64,000 nt of DNA from positions 85,701 to 149,700 of the forward strand of contig JAJFVA010000020.1 of NCBI GenBank assembly GCA_021371995.1. The letters are read 5' to 3'. Under the pieces are notes generated by a model. The model saw only the letters and a list, made by a program, of their open reading frames with translations, had not been told where the DNA came from and made no database searches. This document shows, piece after piece, positions 47,314-64,000 of this stretch (position 1 is the first letter of the stretch; every line of letters starts with the position of its first letter). This DNA comes from Methanoregulaceae archaeon (GTDB lineage Archaea > Halobacteriota > Methanomicrobia > Methanomicrobiales > Methanospirillaceae). A program made the position numbers and the translations under genes.

Positions 47314-48534
47314 GTGCCGGCAGGAGGGCTGGAGCGGATCGCGGTCGGTATCGAAGTCGAGGAGGGAGTGATCGCTTCCCAGCTTGATTATGTTGCAAAT
47401 GGCGGGGGTGACCTCAAGTTCATCCGGGGGGATTACGGGAGCGGGAAGACATTTCTGGTCGCACGAGCCCTGGAGATTGCACGGGAAAAGAACTTTGTCA
47501 CCGCACACGTGGTGATCTCACCCTCCGCCCCCCTCTACAAGCTGAAGGGTATCTACCAGCAGATCTGCGCAACCCTCCGGACCCGCGAGGAAGAACATGC
47601 GGTGAAAGCAGTGATCGATACCTGGCTTTTCTCGATCGAGGAACGCCTGATCAAAGTGAGTGATCACCCGCTGCCTGAAGAGAGCCTTGAGATCGCGACG
47701 CTCAAGGAGATCGAGACGGCCCTTGCTGGTATTTCCGAGATGAACTCATCGCTTGCCGCAGTGCTCCGCACCTACTACCGTGCAAACAACGCCGGGGACT
47801 TCCAGACTGCCCAGTCTGCAATCGGCTGGATCTCTGCAGAACCTAACATCGGCAGGGATTTTAAGGCAAAAGCGGGGATACGGGGCGATGTGGACGAGAC
47901 CTTCGCCCTCATCTTCCTCAGGGGGCTCGTCAGAATAATCGTAAACGCCGGTTATGCCGGCCTTGCCGTTGCAATTGATGAGCTCGAGACCACTCAGGTC
48001 CTGCCGAGGAACCAGCGCGAGAAGGGGTATAATGCACTCCGGCTGCTCATCGATTCACTCGACCGGGGTGAAATGCCCTACTGTTACTTCTTCTTCACTG
48101 GCACTCCCGCGTTCTTCGAAGGGCCGAGGGGGATACGATCGATACCTCCACTCGCTGACCGAATCGGTGTAACCGAAAGCGGTGAATTCAGAAATCCTCG
48201 ACAGCCCCAGATCTTTCTTTCCCGTTTTGATGCAAAGAAACTCGAGCAGGTGGCTGAGAAGGTTATCACCATCTATTCGGAAGCGTACGCAGAAGTTGAC
48301 CGGAACAGAATCTCCCACCGGTTCATCCGGGCCATGATCAGCAAGGTGACAGGAAAGTTTGGAGGCCGGATCGATGTTATTCCCCGTATATTCCTCAAAG
48401 AATTTGTCGATGTGCTGGATAAGTGCGAACTCTATGAGGAGTACGATCCCTGGGAGAGCTACCAGTTTGATGCACGCCATCTGAAGGGGGAGCTTCGCGA
48501 GGAGGAAGAGGCGGTGATGGTGGTTGAGTTCTGA
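47314..48534 (+). CDS. BrxD-like ATPase (DUF2791 P-loop protein)
   Basis: At least 406 residues, from GTG 47314. The P-loop GDYGSGKTFLVARAL is near residue 39, the Walker B strand VAIDELET near residue 222, and FFFTGTPAFFEGPRGIRS follows as the sensor region. This matches DUF2791, the ATP-binding protein BrxD of some BREX phage-defence systems. The family N-terminus normally contains an I-I-x-A-L-R-x-G-T-V-P helix; the same frame upstream of the GTG encodes INIINALRRGT (from 47281), yet no ATG, GTG or TTG precedes it after the stop at 47203. No other BREX gene is nearby. Confidence 0.8.
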   Translation: MPAGGLERIAVGIEVEEGVIASQLDYVANGGGDLKFIRGDYGSGKTFLVARALEIAREKNFVTAHVVISPSAPLYKLKGIYQQICATLRTREEEHAVKAVIDTWLFSIEERLIKVSDHPLPEESLEIATLKEIETALAGISEMNSSLAAVLRTYYRANNAGDFQTAQSAIGWISAEPNIGRDFKAKAGIRGDVDETFALIFLRGLVRIIVNAGYAGLAVAIDELETTQVLPRNQREKGYNALRLLIDSLDRGEMPYCYFFFTGTPAFFEGPRGIRSIPPLADRIGVTESGEFRNPRQPQIFLSRFDAKKLEQVAEKVITIYSEAYAEVDRNRISHRFIRAMISKVTGKFGGRIDVIPRIFLKEFVDVLDKCELYEEYDPWESYQFDARHLKGELREEEEAVMVVEF

Positions 48535-49477: not shown

Positions 49478-49510
49478 TGTTACCTGCTGGTATAATCAAT
49501 TGGTAATACA
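49478..49510 (+). promoter_or_regulatory. Candidate operator upstream of the TupA-WtpA gene
   Basis: TGTTACCTGC is followed by TGGTATAATC, then TTGGTAATACAG. Both right-hand segments resemble TGGTATAACAG, which recurs at 54440-54450 and, reversed, at 55268-55278. It lies about 70-100 bases before the ATG, near the expected promoter. The match is partial. Confidence 0.4.
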
Positions 49511-49578: not shown

Positions 49579-51522
49579 ATGGCTTTGAAGAAACAAATGT
49601 GCATTTTCATTATCCTGTCTCTCCTGATCGTTGGTTTTGCATCTTTTGCAGGATGTACTACCACCGGACCAGGCAGTGGCACTCCCACTGCGACACCGAC
49701 TGCTGCGGAAACAGGCGGCGTGACCACTGTACCGACAACAATTCCGCCCACTCAGGTCGGGCCGAAGACAAAAGTGCTCCTAGCCACCACAACGAGTCTC
49801 TACGATACCGGGCTCCTCGATTATCTGAAGCCGAAGTTTGAGCAAAAGTACAACGCCGAACTCCTGATTACATCGCAGGGTACCGGTAAGGCGCTAGAGG
49901 TTGCCAAGCGTGGTGACTGCGATGTCCTTGCCGTCCACTCACCAAGCCAGGAAACAACGTACATGGAGGACGGTTACGGGTTAAACCGCCGGTGCTTTGC
50001 CTACAATTACTTCGTGATAGTCGGGCCGGCCAATGATCCCGCCGGGGTAAAAGGGATGACCCCGGAAAAGGCATTCACCACCATCCTTACGAAAGGGAAA
50101 GCGAACACCCCGGGAGTCATGTTTGTCTCGCGTGGTGACGCCTCAGGCACCCACTCCGCCGAACAGAATGTCTGGAAATCTGCCGGGTACAACTATACCA
50201 AGGATGTCCAGAAATCGGGCAACTGGTACATCGAAGCGGGTCGTGGCATGGGCGAGACCCTTCAGCTTGCATCCGAAAAAGGTGCCTACACCCTGACCGA
50301 TGAAGGAACGTATCTTGCATACAAGGGCAATCTCGATCTCGAACCTGTCGTCACGGAAGGTGCCATCCTGCTGAATGTGTACTCGGTCATTACGGTCTAC
50401 AATCCAACATTCACACCACAGGAAATCGAGATGGCGAATAACTTCGTCGACTTCATGATCTCACCGGAGACCCAGGCTGATATCGACAATTACGGGAAAG
50501 ATAAGTACGGCAAGAACCTTTTCACCGCGATGAACGGCCAGTGCAGCAAGTGGAACTGTGTCTGTACTGGCGATGCAAACGGTCTCAGACCGATGACTGT
50601 CTTTAATGCCGGAAGCCTCAATTCACCCTTTGCGAAGATCGAGACGGTGTATGAGACCCAGTTCCCGCTTATCGATGCACAGCTTTTCGGAGGAGGAAGT
50701 GTCACCATGATCGAGAAGATCACCAAGCAGGGCAAGAAAGCCGATGTACTTGCTTCTGCCGATGCCTACCTCATCCCGACACTGATGTATCCGACCTATG
50801 CTGACTATTACGTCACGTTTGCAAAGAACCACATGGTGGTGGTGTATACAAACCAGAGCAAGTATAACGACAAGATCAGCTCTGGTAACTGGTATGAGAT
50901 CCTGAACACTCCCGATGTAAAATACGTCATCAGCGATCCCAACACCGATCCTGCAGGGTACCGTGCGGTAATGTCGGTCCAGCTTGCAGAACGGGTGTAT
51001 GGTGTCGATACCATCTTCTCGAGCCTCCTTGGTTCCCACAGCACGATGACAAAGACATTCTCTGATGGAAAATACACCATCGATGTTACCAAGCCTTCAC
51101 CCGACGGGAAGCTCGTCATTGGCAAATCAGGACCGGATGTTGTTACCATCCTAAAAGAGGGGAAAGCTGACTATGCGATCGAGTATAGCAGTGTGGCCAT
51201 TCAGAACGGTCTGCCCTATGTCGAACTCCCGGTAGGGATGGACCTCTCGGCCCAGGAATATGCTGATACGTATGCTACCGTCAAAGTGAAGCGGATCAGC
51301 GGTACCTCCACAGCAACTGAGACTGCTACGCCGATCATCTATGCCGTCACCGTCCCGAAGAACGCACGGAGCCCTGACCTGGGGCTTGAGTTCATAAAGA
51401 TCCTTATCAGCAAGACCGGCCAGGATATCCTCACTGCTGACGGGCAGGAGACCATTGTCCCGGCACTCGGCTATGGCAATGTCCCGGAAGCATTAAAAGC
51501 GAGTGGCCTGGTGATGGCCTGA
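49579..51522 (+). CDS. Tungstate/molybdate-binding lipoprotein, TupA-WtpA fusion
   Basis: The 647-residue protein has a lipoprotein signal (SFAGC, Cys26) and a Thr-rich linker, then two different periplasmic-binding-type domains. Residues 65-318 match TupA: KVLLATTTSLYDTGLLD, SQGTGKALEVAKRGDCD, VSRGDASGTHSAEQNVW. Residues 335-647 match WtpA/ModA: TVFNAGSLNSPFAKIE, GGGSVTMIEKI, SDPNTDPAGYRAVM, AIEYSSVAIQNGLPY. Both bind tungstate or molybdate in relatives. No permease of the Wtp type is next to it, so it probably serves TupBC at 55476-57252. The frame is continuous, so this is a true fusion. Confidence 0.88.
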   Translation: MALKKQMCIFIILSLLIVGFASFAGCTTTGPGSGTPTATPTAAETGGVTTVPTTIPPTQVGPKTKVLLATTTSLYDTGLLDYLKPKFEQKYNAELLITSQGTGKALEVAKRGDCDVLAVHSPSQETTYMEDGYGLNRRCFAYNYFVIVGPANDPAGVKGMTPEKAFTTILTKGKANTPGVMFVSRGDASGTHSAEQNVWKSAGYNYTKDVQKSGNWYIEAGRGMGETLQLASEKGAYTLTDEGTYLAYKGNLDLEPVVTEGAILLNVYSVITVYNPTFTPQEIEMANNFVDFMISPETQADIDNYGKDKYGKNLFTAMNGQCSKWNCVCTGDANGLRPMTVFNAGSLNSPFAKIETVYETQFPLIDAQLFGGGSVTMIEKITKQGKKADVLASADAYLIPTLMYPTYADYYVTFAKNHMVVVYTNQSKYNDKISSGNWYEILNTPDVKYVISDPNTDPAGYRAVMSVQLAERVYGVDTIFSSLLGSHSTMTKTFSDGKYTIDVTKPSPDGKLVIGKSGPDVVTILKEGKADYAIEYSSVAIQNGLPYVELPVGMDLSAQEYADTYATVKVKRISGTSTATETATPIIYAVTVPKNARSPDLGLEFIKILISKTGQDILTADGQETIVPALGYGNVPEALKASGLVMA

Positions 51523-51605: not shown

Positions 51606-51744
51606 AACCGGAGGAGAATAAACAGAACGGGATTCCCAGTCTGCATGGGAGATCGTGTTTGTCTTCAAATCAGACATGGCAGATCATAAGGAAGAGTATG
51701 CAATTTCCAACTATACCACTACTGGGTTTACAGGGAGAGATCCC

Positions 51745-52245
51745 ATGAATAAGAAGATCTGTTACCAGTCCATCGGAGTCATCCACACCCCCTTTCATGA
51801 TCCCGTGGGAATGCCAATTCAGCCGGTTGGTGGAAAAGAGATAACTGGTACCGTTGAGGTCTATCCCGAATTTACTGATGGCCTTATGGATATCGAAGGC
51901 TTCTCACGAATTATTCTCATCTACGATTTTCACCTTTCCGGCGATTGCAGACTTCAGCTGGTTCCTTTTCTCGATACCCTCCCGCATGGAGTCTTTTCCA
52001 CCAGGGCGCCAAATCGTCCGAATTCCATCGGGATATCGGTCGTATATCTCATCAAGAGGGAGGGTAACTGCCTGTACATCAGCGGGGTGGACATTCTTGA
52101 CGGGACTCCCCTCCTTGATATCAAGCCTTATCTCCCGGAGTGCGATGCATTTTTCTGCGAGCGGACTGGCTGGTTTCCCGGGAGCGATTCCTGCTTCATA
52201 ACAATTAGATCGGACGATCGATTTTCAGGAAATGATACTAGTTAA
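51745..52245 (+). CDS. TrmO/TsaA-family SAM-dependent methyltransferase-like protein
   Basis: The 166-residue protein starts at ATG 51745, after GGGAGAG; the frame is open to 51655, but those residues are not family-like. SIGVIHTPFHDPVGMPIQP is the N-terminal beta-barrel signature, and HGVFSTRAPNRPNSIGISVV is the family's central motif. In bacteria TrmO methylates t6A37 of tRNA-Thr. The archaeal form often stands near molybdenum or tungsten genes, as here, for reasons unknown. An inverted repeat lies in its leader. Confidence 0.82.
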   Translation: MNKKICYQSIGVIHTPFHDPVGMPIQPVGGKEITGTVEVYPEFTDGLMDIEGFSRIILIYDFHLSGDCRLQLVPFLDTLPHGVFSTRAPNRPNSIGISVVYLIKREGNCLYISGVDILDGTPLLDIKPYLPECDAFFCERTGWFPGSDSCFITIRSDDRFSGNDTS

Positions 52246-52423: not shown

Positions 52424-53545
52424 TCACCCGCTTTTTTGCCTGATTTGTTTCATGATATAGGGTATCCCGTAGGCGAGACACATCCCTGCAACAAATGCAA
52501 CAGTCATTGATACCAGCAATGAGAGAATCGCAGTTGCGATGGTAACCGTAAAGGAAGCAGTCTTTAAGCCATGCCTCCCCAGTTCGATCGCAACAAAGAG
52601 AAGAAGAGCTGCATAGAATCCCGGAGAGATGAGTCCGATCCATGCCGTGCTCGCAAAGAGCAGCGCTGCGCCGATCAGGATAATCCCGGCATAGATATTA
52701 GCACCGCCTGTTCTCGCCCCGAACCTGTACTGCCCGGCCATCCCCCCGGCCCCGTGACACATGGGCATCCCCCCGAACGGTATCGAAGTGAGGTTCATGA
52801 GCCCTATGGTGCGGGAGAGTTTTTTTGGCCTGATATCCGCTGCGAACAGGTCTTTTGCCAACAGGGACGTTGCCAGGATAGCATTGGTTATCGTCAGGAT
52901 TGCCTGGGGAACGACAAGGACCTGGAGCGCGATGATCACATCGGATGCCGAAGGGATCTCAAAAAGAGAGAACGAGAGCATGGTTATCGGGGGAAACCCC
53001 TGAATGAGGATGCCGGCAGCGAGTGCAACGATGATAACGACAATCGATGAGAGATCGGGGATGCGGAATCGGTATGCGACCAGAAATCCTGCGATGATGA
53101 TGATGGCCCCAAGAAGGAAAAATCCAGGATCGGGAAGGATATATCCCGCAGCAGTCCTGAGGAGGATCAGGGCTAATCCAAGCTGGATACCCCTTACCAC
53201 AGATTGCGGGATATACTGTTCAATATATTCGAGAATATTAGTGAAACCGAACAGGAAGAAGATAACCCCGAGGATGAGTCCGGCAGCAGCAATCTCCCCT
53301 CCAGACATCCCTGCTGATACCGCAATGACGGCAATGACCTTCATTGGTTCGACCGGCACAGGGTACCGGTAGTAATACCCGGTTATGATAAACCAGATGC
53401 CAAGGAAGAGGAGAACCGGCCCTATCCCGAGGGCCCCGGTAGCAGCAAGCGCGAGGGAGAGGGGAAGGATGGTCCCGAAATCCCCGAGGCTGCCGGCAAG
53501 TTCATCGATACCAAACCTGAGTGGCGGTCTGGTGTTTGTGGGCAT
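52424..53545 (-). CDS. MOT1-type molybdate/sulfate transporter
   Basis: The 373-residue membrane protein has about ten helices and the two MOT1 signatures: FGIDELAGSLGDFGTILPLS at residues 11-30 and PMCHGAGGMAGQYRFGARTG near residue 256. MOT1 proteins of plants and algae import molybdate with high affinity; prokaryotic relatives are placed near molybdenum genes. Its gene lies 25 bases after the storage-protein gene on the same strand, so the two form an operon. It may load or unload the store or add to TupBC uptake. Confidence 0.85.
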   Translation of the reverse strand: MPTNTRPPLRFGIDELAGSLGDFGTILPLSLALAATGALGIGPVLLFLGIWFIITGYYYRYPVPVEPMKVIAVIAVSAGMSGGEIAAAGLILGVIFFLFGFTNILEYIEQYIPQSVVRGIQLGLALILLRTAAGYILPDPGFFLLGAIIIIAGFLVAYRFRIPDLSSIVVIIVALAAGILIQGFPPITMLSFSLFEIPSASDVIIALQVLVVPQAILTITNAILATSLLAKDLFAADIRPKKLSRTIGLMNLTSIPFGGMPMCHGAGGMAGQYRFGARTGGANIYAGIILIGAALLFASTAWIGLISPGFYAALLLFVAIELGRHGLKTASFTVTIATAILSLLVSMTVAFVAGMCLAYGIPYIMKQIRQKSG

Positions 53546-53570: not shown

Positions 53571-54383
53571 TCATTTGGCCCGGATCACGGTACCAATCCG
53601 TTCTCCCGCGAGAACACGCCGGATATTGCCGGAATCGTGGCCGTTTATGATGTTCACTTCATGCACATGCTTTGCATCCAGCATGAGCTCGACCACCTTG
53701 GGTTCAAGGACCATGTCCTCCATTTCCATTGCAAGAAGTTCAGTTGCTGTAATATCCGGGATGCAGACAGCATCTTTATCAGTAAATGGATTCCCTGTGA
53801 AGAGACCATCCACATTCTTCACAAGAATCAGGTTCTTTGCGCCGAGAACCTCCGCAGCAAGAAACGCTCCTGTATCAGTGCGATGCGGGGGGATCGAGCC
53901 GATATGTGCCGGCTGCTCATAAAGCCCGTACGGGGGTGTGCCATGAATAACCGGAAGGACACCGAGGTTCATCAGCATGGGGAGTTCGAGAAGGTCAGCA
54001 GTATGGATCCGTGTACCATGGTACGGGGAAAGAAGGATCGATACCATGATTGCGTTCTGTTCGCTGATTTTCCCAGCGAGTTCGGCGAGAACACCGGTCG
54101 GCATCCCGAGATCAAGTCCCACATCGAGGATATGGCGCACCCTGACACCTCCCCCGGTCACCACGAGGATCTGGTTCTCCCGGGAAAGTTCTCCAATCTC
54201 GGTCAGGAGAGGGAGCAGCACTTCCTTTCCATAATCGATAATCCCGTGACCTCCGATCTTCACCACGTTCAGATCAGGCATCATGCGTAGCTGGGTTCGA
54301 CCTTCATAAGCCCTGAGTAACCCCTTCCTTACGAGAGACTCTCCCTGGAGTTTGTTGGCAACTTCAAACCGGTCCCGTTTCAT
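53571..54383 (-). CDS. Molybdenum/tungsten storage protein (MoSto-like)
   Basis: The 270-residue amino-acid-kinase-fold protein resembles MosA/MosB of Azotobacter, which pack polyoxomolybdate or tungstate clusters using ATP. NVVKIGGHGIIDYGKEVLLP, VVTGGGVRVRHI, GMPTGVLAELAGKISEQNA, PPYGLYEQPAHIGSIPPHRT and HVHEVNIINGHDSGNIRRVL follow the MoSto pattern along the whole length. Only one subunit gene is present, against two in Azotobacter, so a homo-oligomer is expected. ATG 54383 has GGGAG at good spacing. UMP kinase is the alternative, but the PPYGL...IPP(H/Y)RTD stretch and neighbours favour storage. Confidence 0.85.
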   Translation of the reverse strand: MKRDRFEVANKLQGESLVRKGLLRAYEGRTQLRMMPDLNVVKIGGHGIIDYGKEVLLPLLTEIGELSRENQILVVTGGGVRVRHILDVGLDLGMPTGVLAELAGKISEQNAIMVSILLSPYHGTRIHTADLLELPMLMNLGVLPVIHGTPPYGLYEQPAHIGSIPPHRTDTGAFLAAEVLGAKNLILVKNVDGLFTGNPFTDKDAVCIPDITATELLAMEMEDMVLEPKVVELMLDAKHVHEVNIINGHDSGNIRRVLAGERIGTVIRAK

Positions 54384-54427
54384 GCAGTCTCCCATAGGTT
54401 TATATCGTTAATGGTTAATACAATATA

Positions 54428-54450
54428 CTGTAAACCAGTTGGTATAACAG
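54428..54450. promoter_or_regulatory. Imperfect palindrome in the divergent MoSto / small-protein promoter
   Basis: CTGTAAACCA and TGGTATAACAG face each other across GT. The half-site TGGTATAACAG is found again, inverted, at 55268-55278 and in part at 49487-49510. The palindrome overlaps the likely core promoters of both the MoSto-MOT1 operon and the gene at 54488, the place for a shared repressor or activator. Confidence 0.55.
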
Positions 54451-54487: not shown

Positions 54488-54703
54488 ATGAAGATGAAGA
54501 TCTATGTCAGAGAGCGGATGAAGGTCCGCGAAGGGGTCAAACAGCCGATGTTCCGGATCGTCGCGGTCACTGGCGGAAACGTCCAGATCGAGCTGACCCA
54601 TTTCAGGAAGTTTGAGATTGAGCAGATCGCGAAGGATGTCGGGGCTGAAGTCGTTTACTTCGAAGAGATCCCTGACGAAGAGAAAGAAAAACAGAAACAC
54701 TAA
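54488..54703 (+). CDS. Small protein of the Mo/W island, unknown
   Basis: The 71-residue protein starts at ATG 54488 with GGGGAGGGG just before it. It is predicted as a small alpha/beta fold: a basic strand MKMKIYVRERMKV, then FRIVAVTGGNVQIELTHFRK, a helix (KFEIEQIAKDVGAEVVYFEE) and a highly charged tail. It has no cysteine, no membrane helix and no signal peptide. It is transcribed divergently from the MoSto-MOT1 operon, and the shared palindrome lies between them. I recognise no family; a metal-handling or regulatory role is only a guess from position. Confidence 0.7.
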   Translation: MKMKIYVRERMKVREGVKQPMFRIVAVTGGNVQIELTHFRKFEIEQIAKDVGAEVVYFEEIPDEEKEKQKH

Positions 54704-54914: not shown

Positions 54915-55262
54915 ATGACAACGCTCTCGATCGATATCATCTACGATTCAGTCCTCCGCATCCAGCTCTTCGAAGAGCATGAAATATCGGTGATTTTTTC
55001 GGAGAGAGGGATCCGCATCAGGCTGCCCACCACCCGAAGGCTTGCAGAGTTCCTCGATGTCCCCCATTACTATGTCCTTCCGTATTTTGCGATGATGGAG
55101 CAGGAGGCACTCGTCACCCGTGCGGAACGTGTCGGGATCATGACCACCCCCGCAGGGACCGCGCGATTCCTCGCAATGATGAAAGAGCGCTATGCAGCAG
55201 AAGGGGAGGCAATCCTTGGGCCGAATATCTATGCAGACCTCATGGTGAGGGCAGGGCTCTGA
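54915..55262 (+). CDS. Possible winged-helix-like protein of the Mo/W island, unknown
   Basis: The 115-residue cytoplasmic protein has an N-terminal beta-rich part (TLSIDIIYDSVLRIQLFEEH) and a helical stretch TTRRLAEFLDVPHYYVLPYF followed by MMEQEALVTRAERVG and IMTTPAGTARFLAMM. The order helix, turn, helix, then strand pair could be a winged helix, as in transcription regulators. It lies between the small protein and tupB on the same strand, so a role in metal-responsive control is plausible. No known family is recognised, and DNA binding is not shown. Confidence 0.65.
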   Translation: MTTLSIDIIYDSVLRIQLFEEHEISVIFSERGIRIRLPTTRRLAEFLDVPHYYVLPYFAMMEQEALVTRAERVGIMTTPAGTARFLAMMKERYAAEGEAILGPNIYADLMVRAGL

Positions 55263-55267
55263 TCTTT

Positions 55268-55278
55268 CTGTTATACCA
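55268..55278. promoter_or_regulatory. Inverted copy of the island motif upstream of tupB
   Basis: CTGTTATACCA is the exact complement of the half-site TGGTATAACAG at 54440-54450. It lies about 35 bases before a TATA-like ATTAATATT (55308-55316), which would drive tupBC. In this orientation it cannot itself be the tupB TATA box, so its conservation suggests a regulator site. Confidence 0.5.
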
Positions 55279-55475
55279 GTTGATGAACCAACAGGTAAGC
55301 AGATATCATTAATATTCCTCCATAATCCAATTAGTTACTATTGAATCGCCTGTCATTTGGAGAGTCCTGCCTGGAGACCATTACGAACGCAAGGCAGAGA
55401 GCAGGGTCACCAAACATATTGTTTGCCCACCGGAAGGAAGCGGCCTCGTAATTGAACGGCAGGAGTATCCATGAT

Positions 55476-56162
55476 ATGAGCGAAGTCGTTGAAGGAATCA
55501 TCCAGGCTATCCAGCTGATTGTCTCTCTCGATGAAGAAGTCCTGGAGATCACCGCAAGGTCCCTCCTGATTTCACTTACGGCCACTCTGATAGGTTCACT
55601 GATTGCCATACCCATCGGGGGATTTATTCACTTCAAAGAGTTTGGAGGGAAGAGGGGACTTGTCACTATCATCCAGACACTCTATGCACTCCCGACGGTA
55701 CTCGCCGGCCTCCTTGTCTTCCTTCTCCTCTCCCGCTCGGGCCCGTTCGGCTTCTTTGGCCTGATGTTCACCCCAGCCGGCATGATCATCGGCCAGATCG
55801 TGCTCATCATTCCCCTCATGATCGGCATGACCCTTATCGCACTCTCCGGAGTAAGCCGTACAAAACAGGATACCGTGATATCGCTTGGCGCCACCGAGAC
55901 GCAGACCGTGATCACTATTGTCAAGGAGGCCCGGTTTGCCATCCTTGGCGGGGTCATACTCGGCTTTGGCCGGGCGATCTCAGAAGTCGGGGCAGCGATG
56001 ATGATTGGTGGCAATATCCGGGGCTACACCCGGGTGCTTACCACCGCCATTGCCCTGGAGACCTCGATGGGCAACCTCTCCTTCTCGATTGCGCTTGGGA
56101 TCATCCTCCTTGCCATTGCCATGTTGGTAACGGGAATACTCTTCCTTGTCCAGGAGCGGTGA
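55476..56162 (+). CDS. tupB: Tungstate ABC transporter permease TupB
   Basis: The 228-residue permease starts at ATG 55476, after AGGAG. It has five membrane helices (SLLISLTATLIGSLIAIPIG, VLAGLLVFLLLS, GQIVLIIPLMIGMTLIALSG, FAILGGVILGFGRA, ALGIILLAIAMLVTGILFLV) and the cytoplasmic EAA loop with SLGATETQ and GRAISEVGAAMMIGG. This matches TupB of tungstate importers rather than ModB. Together with TupC and the fused binding lipoprotein it makes a complete importer. The stop is four bases from the tupC start. Confidence 0.9.
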   Translation: MSEVVEGIIQAIQLIVSLDEEVLEITARSLLISLTATLIGSLIAIPIGGFIHFKEFGGKRGLVTIIQTLYALPTVLAGLLVFLLLSRSGPFGFFGLMFTPAGMIIGQIVLIIPLMIGMTLIALSGVSRTKQDTVISLGATETQTVITIVKEARFAILGGVILGFGRAISEVGAAMMIGGNIRGYTRVLTTAIALETSMGNLSFSIALGIILLAIAMLVTGILFLVQER

Positions 56163-56166
56163 GATT

Positions 56167-57252
56167 GTGATCGATTTTGACCAGGTGGTGATGAACTTCG
56201 GCGAAAAAGAGGTATTAAAGGATATCTCGTTCTCGATAAAGAGCGGCGAGATCTTCACCTTCATCGGGCCGAGCGGGTCAGGAAAGACCACCATCCTCCG
56301 CCTCATTGATATGCTGGAACGACCCACCAGCGGGAACATATCCATCGAGGGCACCGATGTCTCTTCGCTGAAGGACCGGGACAGGATTCCTATTAGGAGG
56401 AAGATGAGCATGGTCTTCCAGAAGCCGTCACCACTCAGGGGAACGGTATTTGACAATGTGGCAATCGGGCTCTGGTTCCGGAAAGTCAGCAACGAGGAAA
56501 TAAAGGCGAGGGTGCCCGAAGCACTAGATCTTGTCGGGCTCAAGGGATACGAGAATCGGAAGGCCGGCACCCTTTCTGGCGGAGAGATGCAGAGGGTGGC
56601 TATTGCCCGGGCAGTCTCTACCAAACCGGATATCCTTCTTCTCGATGAGCCTACCGCCAACCTCGACCCCGCCTCTACTGAAAAGATCGAGAGCCTGATC
56701 TCTGCACTCAAGGAACGGTTCGGAATCACCGTTGTCCTCTCCACTCATGACATGGTACAGGGGCAGAGGCTGGCTGACCGGATTGCTGTGGTGATCGATG
56801 GCAGGATCGGCCAGATCGGGACTTCGAAAGAGATCTTCTACCACCCTATGAACAAGGCTGTGGCGAACATGGTAGGGGTCGAGAATATTTTTGAAGGAGT
56901 TGTTGCCACAAACGAGGGGGGGCTGGCTTCAATCGATGTGAATGGTGCTTCAATTATTGCCACGACCCCGCTTCCCACAGGAACCCCGGTAATACTCTAC
57001 ATGCGCCCGGAGGATATAACATTCCATCTGATCGACGGAGTGAAGAGCAGTGCCCGGAATGAATTCACCGGCCGGATCACAAAGGTCCTCCCAATGGGGC
57101 CAAATGCCCGGCTGAAGATCGATGCCGGGGTGAAGCTGACGGCGGTGATCACCCAGCGGTCGTACGAGGAACTTGATCTTGCGCTTGGCAAGGAGATCGG
57201 GCTTGCCTTCAAGGCCAGCGCGATTCACGTGGTGGAACAGCGATCGTCCTGA
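56167..57252 (+). CDS. tupC: Tungstate ABC transporter ATP-binding protein TupC
   Basis: The 361-residue ATPase starts at GTG 56167, preceded by AGGAG; an upstream in-frame TTG at 56146 lies inside tupB. Walker A GPSGSGKT, the Q-loop in MVFQKPS, signature LSGGEMQR, Walker B ILLLDEPTANLD and STHD are intact. After residue 230 a TOBE-type oxyanion-binding region follows (VENIFEGVVATNEGG, MRPEDITFHL, MGPNARLKIDAG), which in relatives may inhibit transport when metal is plentiful. It ends the importer operon, before a T-run. Confidence 0.92.
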   Translation: MIDFDQVVMNFGEKEVLKDISFSIKSGEIFTFIGPSGSGKTTILRLIDMLERPTSGNISIEGTDVSSLKDRDRIPIRRKMSMVFQKPSPLRGTVFDNVAIGLWFRKVSNEEIKARVPEALDLVGLKGYENRKAGTLSGGEMQRVAIARAVSTKPDILLLDEPTANLDPASTEKIESLISALKERFGITVVLSTHDMVQGQRLADRIAVVIDGRIGQIGTSKEIFYHPMNKAVANMVGVENIFEGVVATNEGGLASIDVNGASIIATTPLPTGTPVILYMRPEDITFHLIDGVKSSARNEFTGRITKVLPMGPNARLKIDAGVKLTAVITQRSYEELDLALGKEIGLAFKASAIHVVEQRSS

Positions 57253-58456: not shown

Positions 58457-61400
58457 CTAGGGCCGGCTATTCAGAACTTCTTCATACAGGAGAACGACAT
58501 CGTCATAGTCAATCCGCCCGTTACCGTTATAGTCATACGGTTCGATGCCGACATCGAGCTGGTCACGAATCCACTGCATGTTCTCGTAGTAGATGACCAC
58601 ATCATCGTAGTCCAGTCGTCCATTCCCATTGATATCCTCATACCGGGAATCGCCATCAGGATCGGACGGTTCATTGGTCTGGCCGGGGAACGGTTTGACC
58701 AGCGATGTGACCTGGATGTAATCGGCCTTGATTTCGGTATCGGAACTGTAGCTGTTTTGGACGGTGAGTTTTACGGTATAATTGCCGGACTTGTCAAACG
58801 AGGTCTTCGGGTTCTGGAGGGTGCTGTCCACCACTCCATTGTTGTCAAAGTCCCATGCCCAGGACGACCCTGGGGGCACCCCGGTCGAGAGATCTGTGAA
58901 TTCGACGAAGAGCGGCTTGGCCAGGGAAGCTTTCCCGGACGTGACATTTGCAGTGAAGTCAGCCTCTATGGGGACGTAGACAACGATTTCACCCGAGGTA
59001 ATTGCAGCCGGGGTAATGAGGGCTCCTCCGTCTGCATCCATATTGACGTTGGACAGCCTGACGGCACTTGAACCTGTGCTGTCAGCTCGTACCGTGATTG
59101 TGGCAAGGAGCGTACTTCCAGCCCCCGGTTCGACCTGGCTACCAAGATCAACTGCACTGAGCTTGAGTGAATCGCTGGGGACTGAGGGGGTCGTGTTATT
59201 CATGCTGCCCCAACCGGGATACTGGACATCGACTATCTCTGCAACAGACACAGTATCGAGCGTCACCCGAAGGTCATATCCGGAAAGACCTTCAGGGAGA
59301 GAGGTGACCCACACTTCATAGGCCGACGTAGAGCCATTGGCCACTGGTTGTGTGGCAGGAGTGAGATACACAATCCTGTCGCCGACAGGCTGAGAGAATG
59401 GCACCAGCTTGATCGAAGCGATCTTTTTCACAGCCTTTGTACCGGAGACATTCTGGCCTGCCAGACGGAGCGGCCAGTTATTATTGGTATCAGGAATCAG
59501 CGTTCCGTTCAGGGTATTTGCAACGATGTAGTTGTTGCTCCGTACGGTATCCCTGCTGTCGAATGTGTAATTGACACCATCCGTACCCGTAATGGTGATG
59601 TTGTATCCTGTTAGTGCCTTCGTTTCATTATATGCATTGCTCGAATGCTGATCGGCGTCATCCACAAATCCGCAGAGGAACCAGAGCGGCATGCCACCCC
59701 ATAACCGTCCACTGCCATCGGTATAGGTTGCAGCGTGATCTGCACCGAACTGGCAGGCGAGTGCCTGCTCGAAGTACGTCTTGCTGATGGTAGCCTGAAG
59801 TCCACCGACAGCACTGCCATCCAGGTCAAGGGTCCAGTCGCTGGAAGGTTCCGAGTAGATCTTGATTGTGGTGATATACTTGGAGGATAATCCGGCGCAG
59901 GATGGATAGAAAATGCTGTCCTGGTAGTAGAAGTGGTGGTAGTTGGGCGGCAAAGTCTGATTCATGTCCCACTGACCGTAGACATGGTCATCGGGAGTGA
60001 AAAAGAGCCGCATGCCGTCGGTATAATAGGGCACGTACTGGCCGTCACCCCACCATGCCAGGATCGCATCGCCCTGCCGGGCCTGGACCGAGGGATCGGT
60101 ATATACCGACGAATAGGGGAGCGTTGTCTCATAGCCATCGCTTGCGATGAGCTTTATCTCGGTTCCGGAACCCATCCCGCCAACCAGGCTACAGAGATCA
60201 CTGATGCGGGAACCTTTCACTGCATTTGCAATCTTGAATCCGCCAGGATAGGTCTCTTCCGGGTCCCAGATATTGGAGGGGTTACCGGTAATGGCCTCGA
60301 ACCGGTATACCGTTGCGCCATCACCGATGACCGGGAGGTGTGCCTCCATCCACTGGTATGTCACATTGGTCTCGTTGATAATCGTGACCCCGTCAGATCC
60401 ATACTTGATGATGTGAAGCGGTGCGGCGGTCTGGACAGAGGCAAAATCGGTAAGTTCGATTTCAGCAATATTCCCTATGCTGTTACTCCCTGTTGCTCCA
60501 GCCCCAACGAGGCGAAGCGGCCATGGCGGGTGGCTCCCTTCGGTTGGCAGGGCAGTGCCGTTCAGGGTATTCGCGATAATATAATCATTGCTTCCTGCAA
60601 TCGGTCCGCTCTGGAACTCCTTGGAATATCCATCGCCGGCCTTTATGATGACCTTGTAACCAGCCGCAGCAGCATCGTCATCGAATGCATTCACTCCAGC
60701 CGGAATCCGGTCATCCACCCATGCAATGACCCGCCAGAGCGGGATACCGGAATAGGCATTTCCGCTGCCATCGGTGTAGGTTGCCGTATTGGCGGCAATC
60801 CATTCCTCAAGCTCGGACTGGGGAACGACATCACTGATCTTACCCTTCAGGCTGAGGCTGTATGCTCCCGGGGGGTATGCCGGGAGCCCTTCAAGGCGGA
60901 TCGTTGTGATGTTCGACACCCGCTGACCGGTGGATGTGGTTGCCGGTCCGACAAGTTTGAGCTGTCCGTTACTACCGGAAAGGGGTGTTCCGTTCAGGGT
61001 GTTGGCGACAATATACCCATTGTTATGGCTCACATTCAGGCTCGCAAACGTTCTGTTATAGCCGTCTCCGGCAATAACCCGGACCGTGTACCCGGTTACA
61101 TTGGCCCGGGTATCATTGAAAGTCCAGTGGCTGGAAGTCTCGATGTCATCGACTGCACCCACGAGATCCCAGAGCGGGACACCGGTCCAGACGCTGCCAC
61201 TTCCGTCAGTATAGGTTACGCTATGGTGACAGACAATCGCTTGTTCGAAGTACTCCTGGGTGATGACATCGATAACATCTCCTTCCATCGTAAGGGTCCA
61301 TCCCTCGGAGGGCTGGGGCATCCCGGTGAGCTCTATCGAGGTGATGTTCCCGACCTGTTGCCCGCCGAACACCGATGATCCCTTCAGGTGGAGCGGCCAG

Positions 61401-64000
61401 CTGAGCTTACCTCCGGGGGTGAGAAGCGGGAGGTCGGTACCGTTCAGCTTGTTTGCCACGATATACCCGTTATTCCGGGCGATATCGGCACTTGCAAGCG
61501 TGGTATTATACCCGTCTCCGGCGGTTACTTTGACCGAATATCCCTGTGCAGCGAGGGTATCGTTAAAGTTGAAGTGATCAGACCCGACATCAGGATTGTC
61601 GTCAACCATCGCTACCAGGAGCCAGAGCGGGACACCGCTCCATTCGGCTCCATCGGTATCGGTCCAGCTTACCATGTGGCCTGACGAGGGGCAGGCAAGT
61701 CCCTGTTCGAAGTAAGTCCTGGTAACAGACTGAGAACGAGCACCGGAGAGCGCGAGCGTCCAGTCTGGTTCCGTGGGTGTCGACCCGCCGATATCGATTG
61801 CGATCTTCACCGCGGTGCTAGCTGCTGACTTTACTGCGGAATAGTCGGTTGGATCGGTTACAGTGCCGTTCACGAAATAGAACTCGACTGTATCGCCATC
61901 ATTCAGGCCTATCAGGTTCAGGGCGCTGGCCGGGTTGTTGTATCCATCCTTGTATACATCATTGACATAGGGATACCAGGCTTTTCTGGGTGTCTTCTGG
62001 TAAAGATACGTACCAATATTATCCAGGAGCAGTGCTCCTGATGCCGCGAAGTTCTTATCGGTCACATCGTAGGTGAACCCTGCTCCAATCTTGGATGCCG
62101 CATCGAGGGCGCCGAGTGGCGTAGTATAGTCCACCGTGTAGGTCCCGCTTGCATTGTTGTACGCGGTGACGGTAAAGGTCTCGCCCTCGGTGAGGGTGAC
62201 GGTGCCGTTGAAGAGCTCATCGACGGATGGTGGAGAGGTGACCGTGATGTAATCTGTCTTGATCTCCTCATCGCTGCCTGCCTCGTTCGTGACGGTCAGG
62301 TTCACGGTATAAGTACCGGCAGTCGTGAAGATGTGTGTCGCGTTCTTCGTGGTGTACTCAACCGTGCCGTCGTTGTTGATATCCCATGCCCATGAGGTGG
62401 GGGTGCCGGTCGATGCTTCAGTGAAGTTGACGGTCAATGGGGCGGTGCCGGTCTGGACATCGGAGATGAATGCGGCAACCGGAGCAATGACGGCGGGAGG
62501 CGTGTAGGTAATGACGCCGTTGTCCCATGCACCCATCAGCGGGTAGTTGTCGAATTCATCAGGAGTAGCACGGATCTGATTTGGTGTATCCCCAATGCCG
62601 TTTCCATCAGTATCAACACCGGAGTAGCCGCTCCAGTAATTACCCATGTAGCCGTTGTATGGAGCACTGTTGTATGAGTAGGCCATCGGCGATTGGGAAT
62701 TCCAGATATTACCGGTGTTGCCGGTGGCATCATAGAAACCGATATGGGAAGTAGTGCTGTTGATGAAGTTATTCTGATAGATCTCGTTCAGTGTGGCCAA
62801 TTGGATTGTCGAAGTGCCCGACGATCTCAACCGAATACCATACTGGTTGTTTGAGAAGGTATTTCCAGTAATGGTGTTGCTTTGCGTCCTGTAAACAAGA
62901 ATACCTGCAAGGAGATTTCCTGATAAGGTGTTACTTGAAATGATATTTTCCCTGCTCTTACCTGCCCAGCTTCCTCCGCTTGCTGTTAAATAGATGCCAT
63001 ATTGGGAATTATCTGAACATATGTTGTTATCAACGGTACATTGTGCACCTTCAATCATAATGCCATACATATCACTGTTACATATGTTGCCGGTTATGGT
63101 ACTGCTGTTGACATGCAGAATACGCATACCTGCACCGGAAGCCCCGAAACCAGATAAATTATTATCTGTTATGGTGCTGTTCGTAACAGAGCCTGTTCCA
63201 CTAGATCCATCAGAAAAGATTCCCATTGATGTTCCGGTAATGGTGAACCCATGGATTGTTACATGGGATGCTGTTATCGTGAAACCAGCCGAGCTGCCAG
63301 CCTGGACTGTAGTGGCATCTCGTCCGTTTTCCGATTGGATGGTCAGGCTCTTTCCCACAACCACGTTCTCCACGTAGGTGCCATCCCTGACTATGATTGT
63401 ATCACCATCAGATGCTGCGTCGACCGCAGCCTGGATTGTGGTAAAGTCCGCTCCACCTGAGTCATCGACATACCACGTCTTCGGGCCTGCCGCTGTCACC
63501 AAGATATAATCCGTCTTGACCTCGCTATCACTGCCACCCGCATTCGTCACCGTAAGGTTCACGGTGTAAGTGCCGGCAGTGTCATAGATGTGGCTCGGGC
63601 TTGGCTCGATGGAATCGACGGTGCCGTCATTCGTGAAGTCCCATGCCCATGAGGTGGGGGTGCCGGTCGATGCATCAGTGAAGTGGACCGTGAGTGGTGC
63701 ATCGCCCGACTGGACGTCGGAGGTAAATGCCGCCTCCGGCACAGTGGGTACAGGATCATCACTGTAGATATAGACCCGGTTCACGTATTTGGCCGACAGG
63801 CCGGTCGTGGTCGGGTAGTTCTCCCCGCCCTGGATATAGTAATACCAGTAGTCCTCATTAGCGGACAGGTACCAATCATAGTTCCCGAAGGCATGGTATC
63901 CCCACGGGTTTATTGAGGTATCGGCAAACCAGACGAGCCGCATACCGTCGGAATACCCTGAGTCCGGGTAATTGCCATTCATGTACCAGGTAAGACCAAT
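58457..64000 (-). CDS. Giant secreted multi-domain protein with cohesin and C-terminal dockerin (N-terminus outside window)
   Basis: The frame is open from the window edge, giving at least 1,847 residues; the signal peptide is not visible. From the N-terminus: end of a repeat module; PKD 1 (about 63740-63500); right-handed beta-helix of NosD-type repeats (63495-62540); PKD 2 (62490-62230); DUF4430-like domain (62225-61850); five modules related to the sulfite-oxidase molybdopterin domain fold (61770-59395, with V-P-L-W and NGYIVAN-LNGT motifs); cohesin-like domain (59375-58975); PKD 3 (58970-58700); dockerin (58670-58460) with two calcium loops, DINGNGRLDYDD and DYNGNGRIDYDD. Sequons are frequent. 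It is a probable surface or scaffold protein. Confidence 0.85.
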   Translation of the reverse strand: MGLTWYMNGNYPDSGYSDGMRLVWFADTSINPWGYHAFGNYDWYLSANEDYWYYYIQGGENYPTTTGLSAKYVNRVYIYSDDPVPTVPEAAFTSDVQSGDAPLTVHFTDASTGTPTSWAWDFTNDGTVDSIEPSPSHIYDTAGTYTVNLTVTNAGGSDSEVKTDYILVTAAGPKTWYVDDSGGADFTTIQAAVDAASDGDTIIVRDGTYVENVVVGKSLTIQSENGRDATTVQAGSSAGFTITASHVTIHGFTITGTSMGIFSDGSSGTGSVTNSTITDNNLSGFGASGAGMRILHVNSSTITGNICNSDMYGIMIEGAQCTVDNNICSDNSQYGIYLTASGGSWAGKSRENIISSNTLSGNLLAGILVYRTQSNTITGNTFSNNQYGIRLRSSGTSTIQLATLNEIYQNNFINSTTSHIGFYDATGNTGNIWNSQSPMAYSYNSAPYNGYMGNYWSGYSGVDTDGNGIGDTPNQIRATPDEFDNYPLMGAWDNGVITYTPPAVIAPVAAFISDVQTGTAPLTVNFTEASTGTPTSWAWDINNDGTVEYTTKNATHIFTTAGTYTVNLTVTNEAGSDEEIKTDYITVTSPPSVDELFNGTVTLTEGETFTVTAYNNASGTYTVDYTTPLGALDAASKIGAGFTYDVTDKNFAASGALLLDNIGTYLYQKTPRKAWYPYVNDVYKDGYNNPASALNLIGLNDGDTVEFYFVNGTVTDPTDYSAVKSAASTAVKIAIDIGGSTPTEPDWTLALSGARSQSVTRTYFEQGLACPSSGHMVSWTDTDGAEWSGVPLWLLVAMVDDNPDVGSDHFNFNDTLAAQGYSVKVTAGDGYNTTLASADIARNNGYIVANKLNGTDLPLLTPGGKLSWPLHLKGSSVFGGQQVGNITSIELTGMPQPSEGWTLTMEGDVIDVITQEYFEQAIVCHHSVTYTDGSGSVWTGVPLWDLVGAVDDIETSSHWTFNDTRANVTGYTVRVIAGDGYNRTFASLNVSHNNGYIVANTLNGTPLSGSNGQLKLVGPATTSTGQRVSNITTIRLEGLPAYPPGAYSLSLKGKISDVVPQSELEEWIAANTATYTDGSGNAYSGIPLWRVIAWVDDRIPAGVNAFDDDAAAAGYKVIIKAGDGYSKEFQSGPIAGSNDYIIANTLNGTALPTEGSHPPWPLRLVGAGATGSNSIGNIAEIELTDFASVQTAAPLHIIKYGSDGVTIINETNVTYQWMEAHLPVIGDGATVYRFEAITGNPSNIWDPEETYPGGFKIANAVKGSRISDLCSLVGGMGSGTEIKLIASDGYETTLPYSSVYTDPSVQARQGDAILAWWGDGQYVPYYTDGMRLFFTPDDHVYGQWDMNQTLPPNYHHFYYQDSIFYPSCAGLSSKYITTIKIYSEPSSDWTLDLDGSAVGGLQATISKTYFEQALACQFGADHAATYTDGSGRLWGGMPLWFLCGFVDDADQHSSNAYNETKALTGYNITITGTDGVNYTFDSRDTVRSNNYIVANTLNGTLIPDTNNNWPLRLAGQNVSGTKAVKKIASIKLVPFSQPVGDRIVYLTPATQPVANGSTSAYEVWVTSLPEGLSGYDLRVTLDTVSVAEIVDVQYPGWGSMNNTTPSVPSDSLKLSAVDLGSQVEPGAGSTLLATITVRADSTGSSAVRLSNVNMDADGGALITPAAITSGEIVVYVPIEADFTANVTSGKASLAKPLFVEFTDLSTGVPPGSSWAWDFDNNGVVDSTLQNPKTSFDKSGNYTVKLTVQNSYSSDTEIKADYIQVTSLVKPFPGQTNEPSDPDGDSRYEDINGNGRLDYDDVVIYYENMQWIRDQLDVGIEPYDYNGNGRIDYDDVVLLYEEVLNSRP
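58460..58670 (-). other. Type I dockerin domain of the giant protein
   Basis: Two 12-residue EF-hand-like calcium loops, DINGNGRLDYDD and DYNGNGRIDYDD, each followed by a helix (VVIYYENM and VVLLYEEV), are spaced by about 30 residues at the extreme C-terminus. This is the standard F-hand pair of type I dockerins, which bind cohesins in a calcium-dependent way. The asparagine-glycine positions are all intact. Confidence 0.9.
62382..62427 (-). repeat. Direct repeat, copy 1 (PKD coding segment)
   Basis: This segment is identical, apart from one base, to 63639-63684. It encodes the TSWAWD region of PKD 2, which matches the same region in PKD 1. Near-identity of the DNA and not only of the protein suggests recent duplication or gene conversion between the domains. 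Confidence 0.8.
63639..63684 (-). repeat. Direct repeat, copy 2 (PKD coding segment)
   Basis: Partner of 62382-62427, in the first PKD domain of the giant protein, about 1.26 kb away. The intervening DNA encodes the beta-helix and could be deleted by recombination between the copies. Confidence 0.8.

What the first reader, a model, noticed from the sequence alone, without database searches (positions are those of the whole stretch)
53571..54383. MoSto-like molybdenum/tungsten storage protein in a methanogen, in an operon with a MOT1 transporter
The protein follows the Azotobacter MosA/MosB pattern over its full length, including PPYGL...IPP(H/Y)RTD and the C-terminal VNG/ING...AGE-IGT segment. 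Metal storage is well described only in diazotrophic bacteria with two subunits. Here there is one subunit, paired with a MOT1 transporter 25 bases downstream and next to a tungstate importer. A methanogen using tungsten or molybdenum formylmethanofuran and formate dehydrogenases would gain from such a store.
Basis: partly seen in the sequence, partly recalled or inferred. Interest (0 to 1): 0.75.

Follow-up and report, generated by a model that had tools for sequence, protein, structure and literature searches.

The report
Archaeal molybdenum/tungsten store with new partners

Summary
The gene is real (minus strand, 53571-54383) and matches MosB and MosA far better than any UMP kinase (209 and 164 versus 41 bits). 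The genome has a separate PyrH. MOT1 lies 25 bp downstream; tungstate-importer genes lie on both sides.

It is no plain MosA/MosB: one copy, and the bacterial cluster ligands Glu129 and His156 are replaced by other residues.

A 71-aa protein (54488-54703) is in 67 of 67 MoSto-bearing genomes and 3 of 325 others. A 115-aa predicted winged-helix protein (54915-55262) is in 61 of 67. A palindrome, TATACCA-NN-TGGTATA, precedes the 71-aa gene in 60 of 62 genomes with the winged-helix gene and 0 of 8 without. It recurs, less often, upstream of importer genes. MoSto does not track nitrogenase.

Verdict: a new archaeal variant of MoSto in a likely tungsten/molybdenum storage module with two undescribed partners. 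Metal binding, DNA binding and the small protein's role are untested.

The parts
53571..54383 (-). archaeal MoSto homologue, 270 aa (an upstream in-frame ATG at 54395 gives 274 aa)
54488..54703 (+). 71-aa protein (sm71), divergent from MoSto; no Pfam or NCBIfam match for the window's protein; constant partner of archaeal MoSto
54915..55262 (+). 115-aa predicted winged-helix protein (sm115), candidate regulator
54431..54446 (.). palindrome TAAACCAGTTGGTATA between MoSto and sm71, candidate operator
55272..55287 (.). weaker copy of the palindrome upstream of the importer permease gene (matrix score 12.8; the main site scores 26.0)
49479..49494 (.). weak copy of the palindrome about 85 bp upstream of the substrate-binding protein gene (matrix score 10.6)
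52424..53545 (-). MOT1-family molybdate transporter, 25 bp downstream of MoSto
49579..51522 (+). fused substrate-binding protein: TupA-like half plus WtpA half
55452..56162 (+). importer permease (TupB-like, below that model's cut-off)
56146..57252 (+). importer ATPase with TOBE domain (WtpC/TupC-like, below the WtpC cut-off)

Best explanation
This is a single-subunit archaeal branch of the MoSto family that likely stores tungstate or molybdate in an ATP-loaded protein cage, encoded with a small protein found in all 67 sampled genomes that carry it, which is likely a working partner of the cage, and with a predicted winged-helix regulator that likely binds a palindrome in the shared promoter region. 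Shown: MoSto kinship apart from PyrH; retention of the kinase-fold Lys46, Asp174 and Lys193 in every archaeal member aligned; loss of the bacterial cluster ligands; strict co-occurrence and co-duplication of sm71 with MoSto; presence of the palindrome tied to presence of sm115; linkage to tungstate and molybdate transporters. Inferred: oxyanion imported by the ABC system or MOT1 is loaded into a homo-oligomeric cage with ATP, as in Azotobacter; the archaeal residues Arg129, His131, Asp134, Glu160 and His253 (and perhaps sm71's invariant Arg, Lys and His) replace the missing ligands; sm115 senses metal status and sets expression of sm71-sm115, MoSto and, in part, the importer; the stored metal serves molybdopterin enzymes rather than nitrogenase.
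For: MosB 209 bits, MosA 164, best UMP kinase 41; P0001 below the pyrH_arch cut-off (63.8 against 158 bits) while the genome has another PyrH at 248.5 bits; PyrH split off at 100/100. Residues. Co-occurrence in the same 392 genomes: sm71 67/67 with MoSto and 3/325 without; sm115 61/67 and 2/325. Seven of 7 genomes of genus code g16 with tandem MoSto have 2 MoSto, 2 sm71, 1 sm115. Palindrome with at most 3 mismatches of 14 in 91 of 93 MoSto-sm71 gaps against 1.5% of shuffles. In the 80 loci, a matrix score of 12 or more within 250 bp upstream: MoSto 71 of 79, TupA 7 of 21, TupB 9 of 47; shuffled 0 of 395, 1 of 105, 0 of 235. Before sm71: 60/62 genomes with sm115, 0/8 without. Transporter genes within 5 kb in 37/42 loci. 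nifD over cut-off in 5/44 MoSto-bearing and 7/16 MoSto-lacking genomes, none in this one. sm115 model pLDDT 93.7 with helix, two strands, two helices and a two-strand wing.
Against: No measurement of metal, ATP hydrolysis, oligomer or DNA binding exists here. Loss of Glu129, His140 and His156 could mean that no polyoxometalate forms. Lys193 is kinase-like (as in MosB), so a small-molecule kinase is not excluded. The palindrome with 2 mismatches is not commoner than its reversed control in 46 of 60 genomes, so there is no large regulon; at score 12 it is upstream of MOT1 in 0 of 42, of TupC in 0 of 66 and of WtpA in 1 of 15 loci. TupA-like genes are also in 12 of 16 MoSto-lacking genomes against 41 of 44 (Fisher p 0.07), and none of the 60 passes that model's cut-off. 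MOT1 is widespread (164 of 392 genomes, 146 over cut-off). Two genomes with sm115 lack the palindrome (G021, G367). The Fisher test behind the sm115-palindrome link does not correct for relatedness. Three of 109 loci (L034, L067, L075) have room but no sm71 in the locus.
Confidence: 0.62

Rival explanations
1. The protein is a small-molecule kinase of the amino-acid-kinase fold with an unknown substrate, co-regulated with Mo/W uptake but not storing metal.
For: Lys46, Asp174 and Lys193 are 100% conserved in the 109 archaeal rows, the set that I recall as catalytic in acetylglutamate kinase; the metal ligands of MosA are missing.
Against: MosB, a proven part of the cage, has the same three residues; similarity to MoSto far exceeds that to any kinase of known structure; linkage to tungstate/molybdate transport.
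Confidence: 0.15
2. It is a cytosolic tungstate/molybdate sensor or buffer with few binding sites, working through sm71 or sm115, rather than a high-capacity store.
For: Tight linkage with a predicted regulator and a candidate operator; cluster ligands of the bacterial store are absent.
Against: Six genomes keep MoSto and sm71 without sm115 or the palindrome, so regulation is not its only role; tandem duplication of MoSto with sm71 but not of sm115 suits a dosage-dependent store.
Confidence: 0.14
3. sm71, not sm115, is the operator-binding protein.
For: The palindrome lies within 150 bp upstream of 100 of 102 sm71 genes, also where MoSto has moved away; sm71 has several invariant Arg and Lys residues.
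Against: All 8 genomes with sm71 but no sm115 lack the palindrome; G261 keeps the palindrome at sm71-MoSto although its sm115 lies elsewhere in the genome; sm115 has the winged-helix model (sm71 was not modelled).
Confidence: 0.12
4. It is an ordinary UMP kinase, as NCBI names it.
For: Same fold family (PF00696); NCBI label.
Against: Fails the pyrH cut-off; a true PyrH is present in the same genome and, over cut-off, in 39 of 41 genomes of the order; tree.
Confidence: 0.02

Closest known systems
Azotobacter vinelandii MoSto (MosA/MosB; PDB 2OGX, 4F6T)
   Same: Homology over residues 12-273, 43% to MosB and 37% to MosA; kinase-fold Lys and Asp kept; Gln113-Asn114, the PPY segment and Arg172/Asp174 shared.
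   Different: One subunit; Glu129, His140 and His156-158 of MosA absent; own invariants; linked to sm71, sm115 and tungstate importers; not tied to nitrogenase. The one Azospirillum mos locus that I opened has a mosB-like gene followed by mosA and no sm71.
Tub/Mop molbindins (e.g. Eubacterium limosum Tub, PMC11980592)
   Same: Proposed role: tungstate or molybdate store.
   Different: 70-aa TOBE-domain hexamers binding eight oxyanions (abstract and passages); a different domain family.
Archaeal UMP kinase PyrH (TIGR02076)
   Same: Amino-acid-kinase fold.
   Different: 63.8 bits against a 158-bit cut-off; separate PyrH in the genome; separate clade.
ModE and TunR-type Mo/W regulators (recalled, not compared here)
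   Same: Proposed role of sm115.
   Different: Two members of sm115 match no NCBIfam model above cut-off; the window's sm115 matches no Pfam model at E 1 and no TOBE domain shows among hits of 45 members.

Membership tests
MoSto (MosA/MosB) | full-length similarity to MosA/MosB well above that to UMP kinases | tested here: met
   209 and 164 against 41 bits
MoSto (MosA/MosB) | falls with MosA and MosB apart from PyrH in a tree | tested here: met
   100/100 split from PyrH; the order of archaeal, alpha and beta branches is unresolved
MoSto (MosA/MosB) | two different subunits, alpha and beta | tested here: not met
   one copy in the genome; archaeal rows form their own group, neither alpha nor beta (support 82/73, not starred)
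MoSto (MosA/MosB) | cluster ligands Glu129 and His156, and His140 (recalled), of the alpha subunit | tested here: not met
   positions are His (95%), Gly (98%) and Leu (90%) in 109 archaeal rows; Glu 93%, His 100%, His 100% in 31 alpha rows
MoSto (MosA/MosB) | kinase-fold nucleotide-site Lys and Asp | tested here: met
   Lys46 and Asp174 100%; nucleotide binding itself not tested
MoSto (MosA/MosB) | hexameric cage holding many Mo or W atoms, loaded with ATP | not testable with these tools
   needs purified protein
UMP kinase PyrH | score above the TIGR02076 cut-off | tested here: not met
   63.8 against 158.05 bits
winged-helix transcription regulators (sm115) | three helices with a two-strand wing after the third | tested here: met
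   model pLDDT 93.7: H6-21, E26-29, E32-37, H40-47, H55-63, wing E67-70 and E74-77; only weak HTH hits by sequence; the fold library could not be searched
winged-helix transcription regulators (sm115) | binds DNA | not testable with these tools
   inferred from the co-presence of sm115 and the palindrome
ModE-type regulators (sm115) | TOBE/molybdate-binding domain | tested here: not met
   no such domain among Pfam hits up to E 1 for 45 members

The most novel reading that the evidence does not exclude
Archaea run their own tungsten/molybdenum store: a one-subunit MoSto cage whose missing metal ligands or loading gate are supplied by a dedicated 71-aa partner protein, switched by a new family of winged-helix regulators at a TATACCA-NN-TGGTATA operator that also governs tungstate import. 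It serves methanogenesis enzymes rather than nitrogenase.
Probability: 0.4. Interest if true: 0.8.

Novelty: new variant of a known kind. Interest (0 to 1): 0.64.

Why it matters
Metal storage by MoSto is described for nitrogen-fixing bacteria. My paper searches (open-licence PubMed Central only) listed no paper on it in archaea; of the seven papers holding both 'molybdenum storage protein' and 'archaea' I saw passages of all seven, and none of those passages reports it in an archaeon. A tungsten or molybdenum store in methanogens would bear on how they cope with scarce metals needed for formylmethanofuran and formate dehydrogenases. The finding turns a gene filed as 'uridylate kinase' into a testable three-part system with a defined DNA site, and the strict pairing with sm71 suggests that the archaeal cage needs a second component, for which I found no family description.

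Tried and rejected
UMP kinase: rejected. Membership in the beta subunit group: the single-sequence score suggests beta, but the tree makes a separate archaeal group, and tests do not resolve whether it joins alpha or beta (p-AU 0.71 and 0.64; both held trees even had slightly higher likelihood). A nitrogenase link: rejected for this genome and not seen in the sample. A large genome-wide regulon: not seen. At 2 mismatches the palindrome is no commoner than its reversed control in 46 of 60 genomes, and of the 6 other core matches in this genome only one scores above 8, and it lies inside open frames. A TATA-like box between the palindrome and MoSto was found in 43 of 91 regions against 19% of shuffles; promoter geometry is left open, so activation or repression is not claimed. 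sm71: no Pfam or NCBIfam match for the window's protein, no solved-structure match at E 10, a weak PHROGs hit at E 0.046, and none in 72,556 plasmid records at E 0.01. MOT1 as the key partner: it lies same-strand within 350 bp in 21 of 80 loci only, is common beyond MoSto genomes and has the palindrome upstream in 0 of 42 loci at score 12.

Full report
The gene. Window 53571-54383, minus strand, encodes a 270-aa protein (274 aa from an upstream in-frame ATG at 54395). Against all solved structures it scores 209 bits with MosB, 164 with MosA and 41 with the best UMP kinase. Pfam sees only the broad amino-acid-kinase family, and the archaeal UMP kinase model scores 63.8 bits against a cut-off of 158. 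The same genome has a true PyrH at 248.5 bits and no second MoSto.

Tree. It has 71 rows: the query, 34 of 108 archaeal homologues, 11 alpha, 11 beta and 14 of 16 PyrH loci (two PyrH loci missed the BLAST limit and fell out). PyrH separates at 100/100. The archaeal rows form one group (82/73), alpha and beta theirs (100/99, 99/97). Whether the archaeal group branched before the alpha/beta split is not resolved: trees joining it to beta or to alpha are not rejected (p-AU 0.64 and 0.71) and were even slightly more likely than the free tree.

Residues. One search aligned 108 archaeal rows plus the query, 30 of 120 beta rows plus MosB, and 30 of 119 alpha rows plus MosA (one 414-aa alpha row was dropped). 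PMC4504029 (passages) reports octamolybdate bound covalently to His156 and Glu129; these numbers fit MosA, not MosB. Both are near-invariant in alpha (100% and 93%) and absent in archaea (Gly 98%, His 95%). His140, which I recall as the tungsten-cluster ligand, is Leu in 90%. Archaea have their own fixed set in the same stretch: Arg129 100%, His131 95%, Asp134 100%, Glu160 100%, and His253 98% further on. Lys46, Asp174 and Lys193, as in MosB, are 100%. So the fold and the nucleotide site are kept while the metal pocket is remade. The proteins count as homologues, not as proven MosA/MosB members.

Spread and names. A scan of species genomes gave 80 loci (the best 80 of 93), mostly Methanomicrobiales, with Methanocellales, Asgard (Borrarchaeum, Sifarchaeum) and one Thermoplasmata record. 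In an even sample of 392 genomes of the phylum, 67 have it. JGI calls close homologues 'molybdenum storage protein', NCBI 'uridylate kinase', so the likeness itself is known to annotation pipelines.

Neighbours. The 80 loci and 29 (109 in all; some species occur in both sets) were compared with the window. In the 42 loci with at least 5 kb on both sides, 37 have a tungstate/molybdate transporter gene within 5 kb. Same-strand transporter genes within 350 bp occur in 26 of 80, of them MOT1 in 21.

sm71. Between MoSto and sm115 lies a 71-aa frame on the strand opposite to MoSto (54488-54703). A relative is in 103 of 109 loci and stands divergent and adjacent in 93; some misses are contig ends or genomes that keep it elsewhere (G023, G192). 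In the 392 genomes, sm71 is in 67 of 67 with MoSto and 3 of 325 without, all three incomplete genomes (70-85%) of one genus. In seven of seven genus-g16 genomes with two MoSto genes there are two sm71 and one sm115. Twelve of its columns are invariant in 28 rows, among them Arg8, Arg10, Lys12, His38, Arg40, Glu43 and Glu45. It has no Pfam or NCBIfam family above cut-off in five members and no structure match. Its role is inferred to be a partner of the cage.

sm115. The next gene (54915-55262) encodes 115 aa. It is in 91 of 109 loci, 61 of 67 MoSto genomes and 2 of 325 others. The model is confident (pLDDT 93.7): helix, two strands, two helices, then a two-strand wing, the element order of a winged helix. 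Sequence hits are weak HTH families and DtxR-type repressors at E 0.02. No fold search could be run.

Palindrome. Hexamer counts in 80 intergenic stretches pointed to GGTATA in 76. With at most 3 mismatches of 14, TATACCA-NN-TGGTATA is in 91 of 93 MoSto-sm71 gaps against 1.5% of dinucleotide shuffles. In the window it is TAAACCAGTTGGTATA at 54431-54446. A matrix made from these sites, at score 12 or more within 250 bp upstream in the 80 loci, finds it before MoSto in 71 of 79, TupA in 7 of 21, TupB in 9 of 47, WtpA in 1 of 15, sm115 in 1 of 68, MOT1 in 0 of 42 and TupC in 0 of 66; shuffled copies give 0 of 395, 1 of 105, 0 of 235, 0 of 75, 0 of 340, 0 of 210 and 1 of 330. It follows sm71 even where MoSto has moved (100 of 102 sm71 genes). 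Over all 70 sm71 genomes it is present in 60 of 62 with sm115 and 0 of 8 without, the eight lying in four families. The two exceptions are G021, whose sm115 is broken by a stop, and G367. The matrix was trained on MoSto-adjacent sites from overlapping species, and the Fisher value (5e-9) ignores relatedness. The link suggests, but does not show, that sm115 binds the site. Genome-wide, the loose pattern is not enriched over its reversed control, so any regulon is small.

Which metal, what for. The genome has five places of the molybdopterin-oxidoreductase family over cut-off, two of them strong, and no nifD at E 1e-60; nifD over cut-off is in 5 of 44 MoSto-bearing and 7 of 16 MoSto-lacking genomes of a set of 60 that I chose. 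One half of the fused binding protein meets a tungstate WtpA cut-off. Tungsten is therefore, in my judgement, at least as likely as molybdenum.

Literature. Passages seen: PMC4504029, PMC6448029, PMC11980592, PMC6294228, PMC9769095, PMC5599499, PMC7240030, PMC10581106, PMC10949490, PMC8406325. Search listings only. Nothing seen there described MoSto in archaea; most subscription papers are not held.

Noticed in passing
49579-51522 (+): One 647-aa protein joins a TupA-like and a WtpA-like substrate-binding protein; open frames of 637-741 aa at TupA-like matches in G049, G145, G197, G285 and G016 suggest that the fusion recurs, against mostly 290-420 aa elsewhere.
   Followed up: partly
51655-52245 (+): A TrmO-family (PF01980) gene sits in the cluster and recurs near archaeal MoSto in 20 of 109 loci.
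   Followed up: no
47314-48534 (+): BrxC/BrxD-family ATPase (PF10923, 402 bits); it recurs in nine of the 109 related loci. Other BREX genes were not looked for.
   Followed up: no
58457-63982 (-): 1841-aa surface protein with PKD repeats, beta-helix and a molybdopterin-binding-like stretch and, by eye, a dockerin-like C-terminus.
   Followed up: no
G328:C1:953997-954353: In one related genome the MoSto match is short and carries an in-frame TGA, while sm71 and sm115 remain in the genome.
   Followed up: no
L158 (G281): A genome without MoSto or sm71 keeps sm115 beside TupA, MOT1 and TupB genes.
   Followed up: partly
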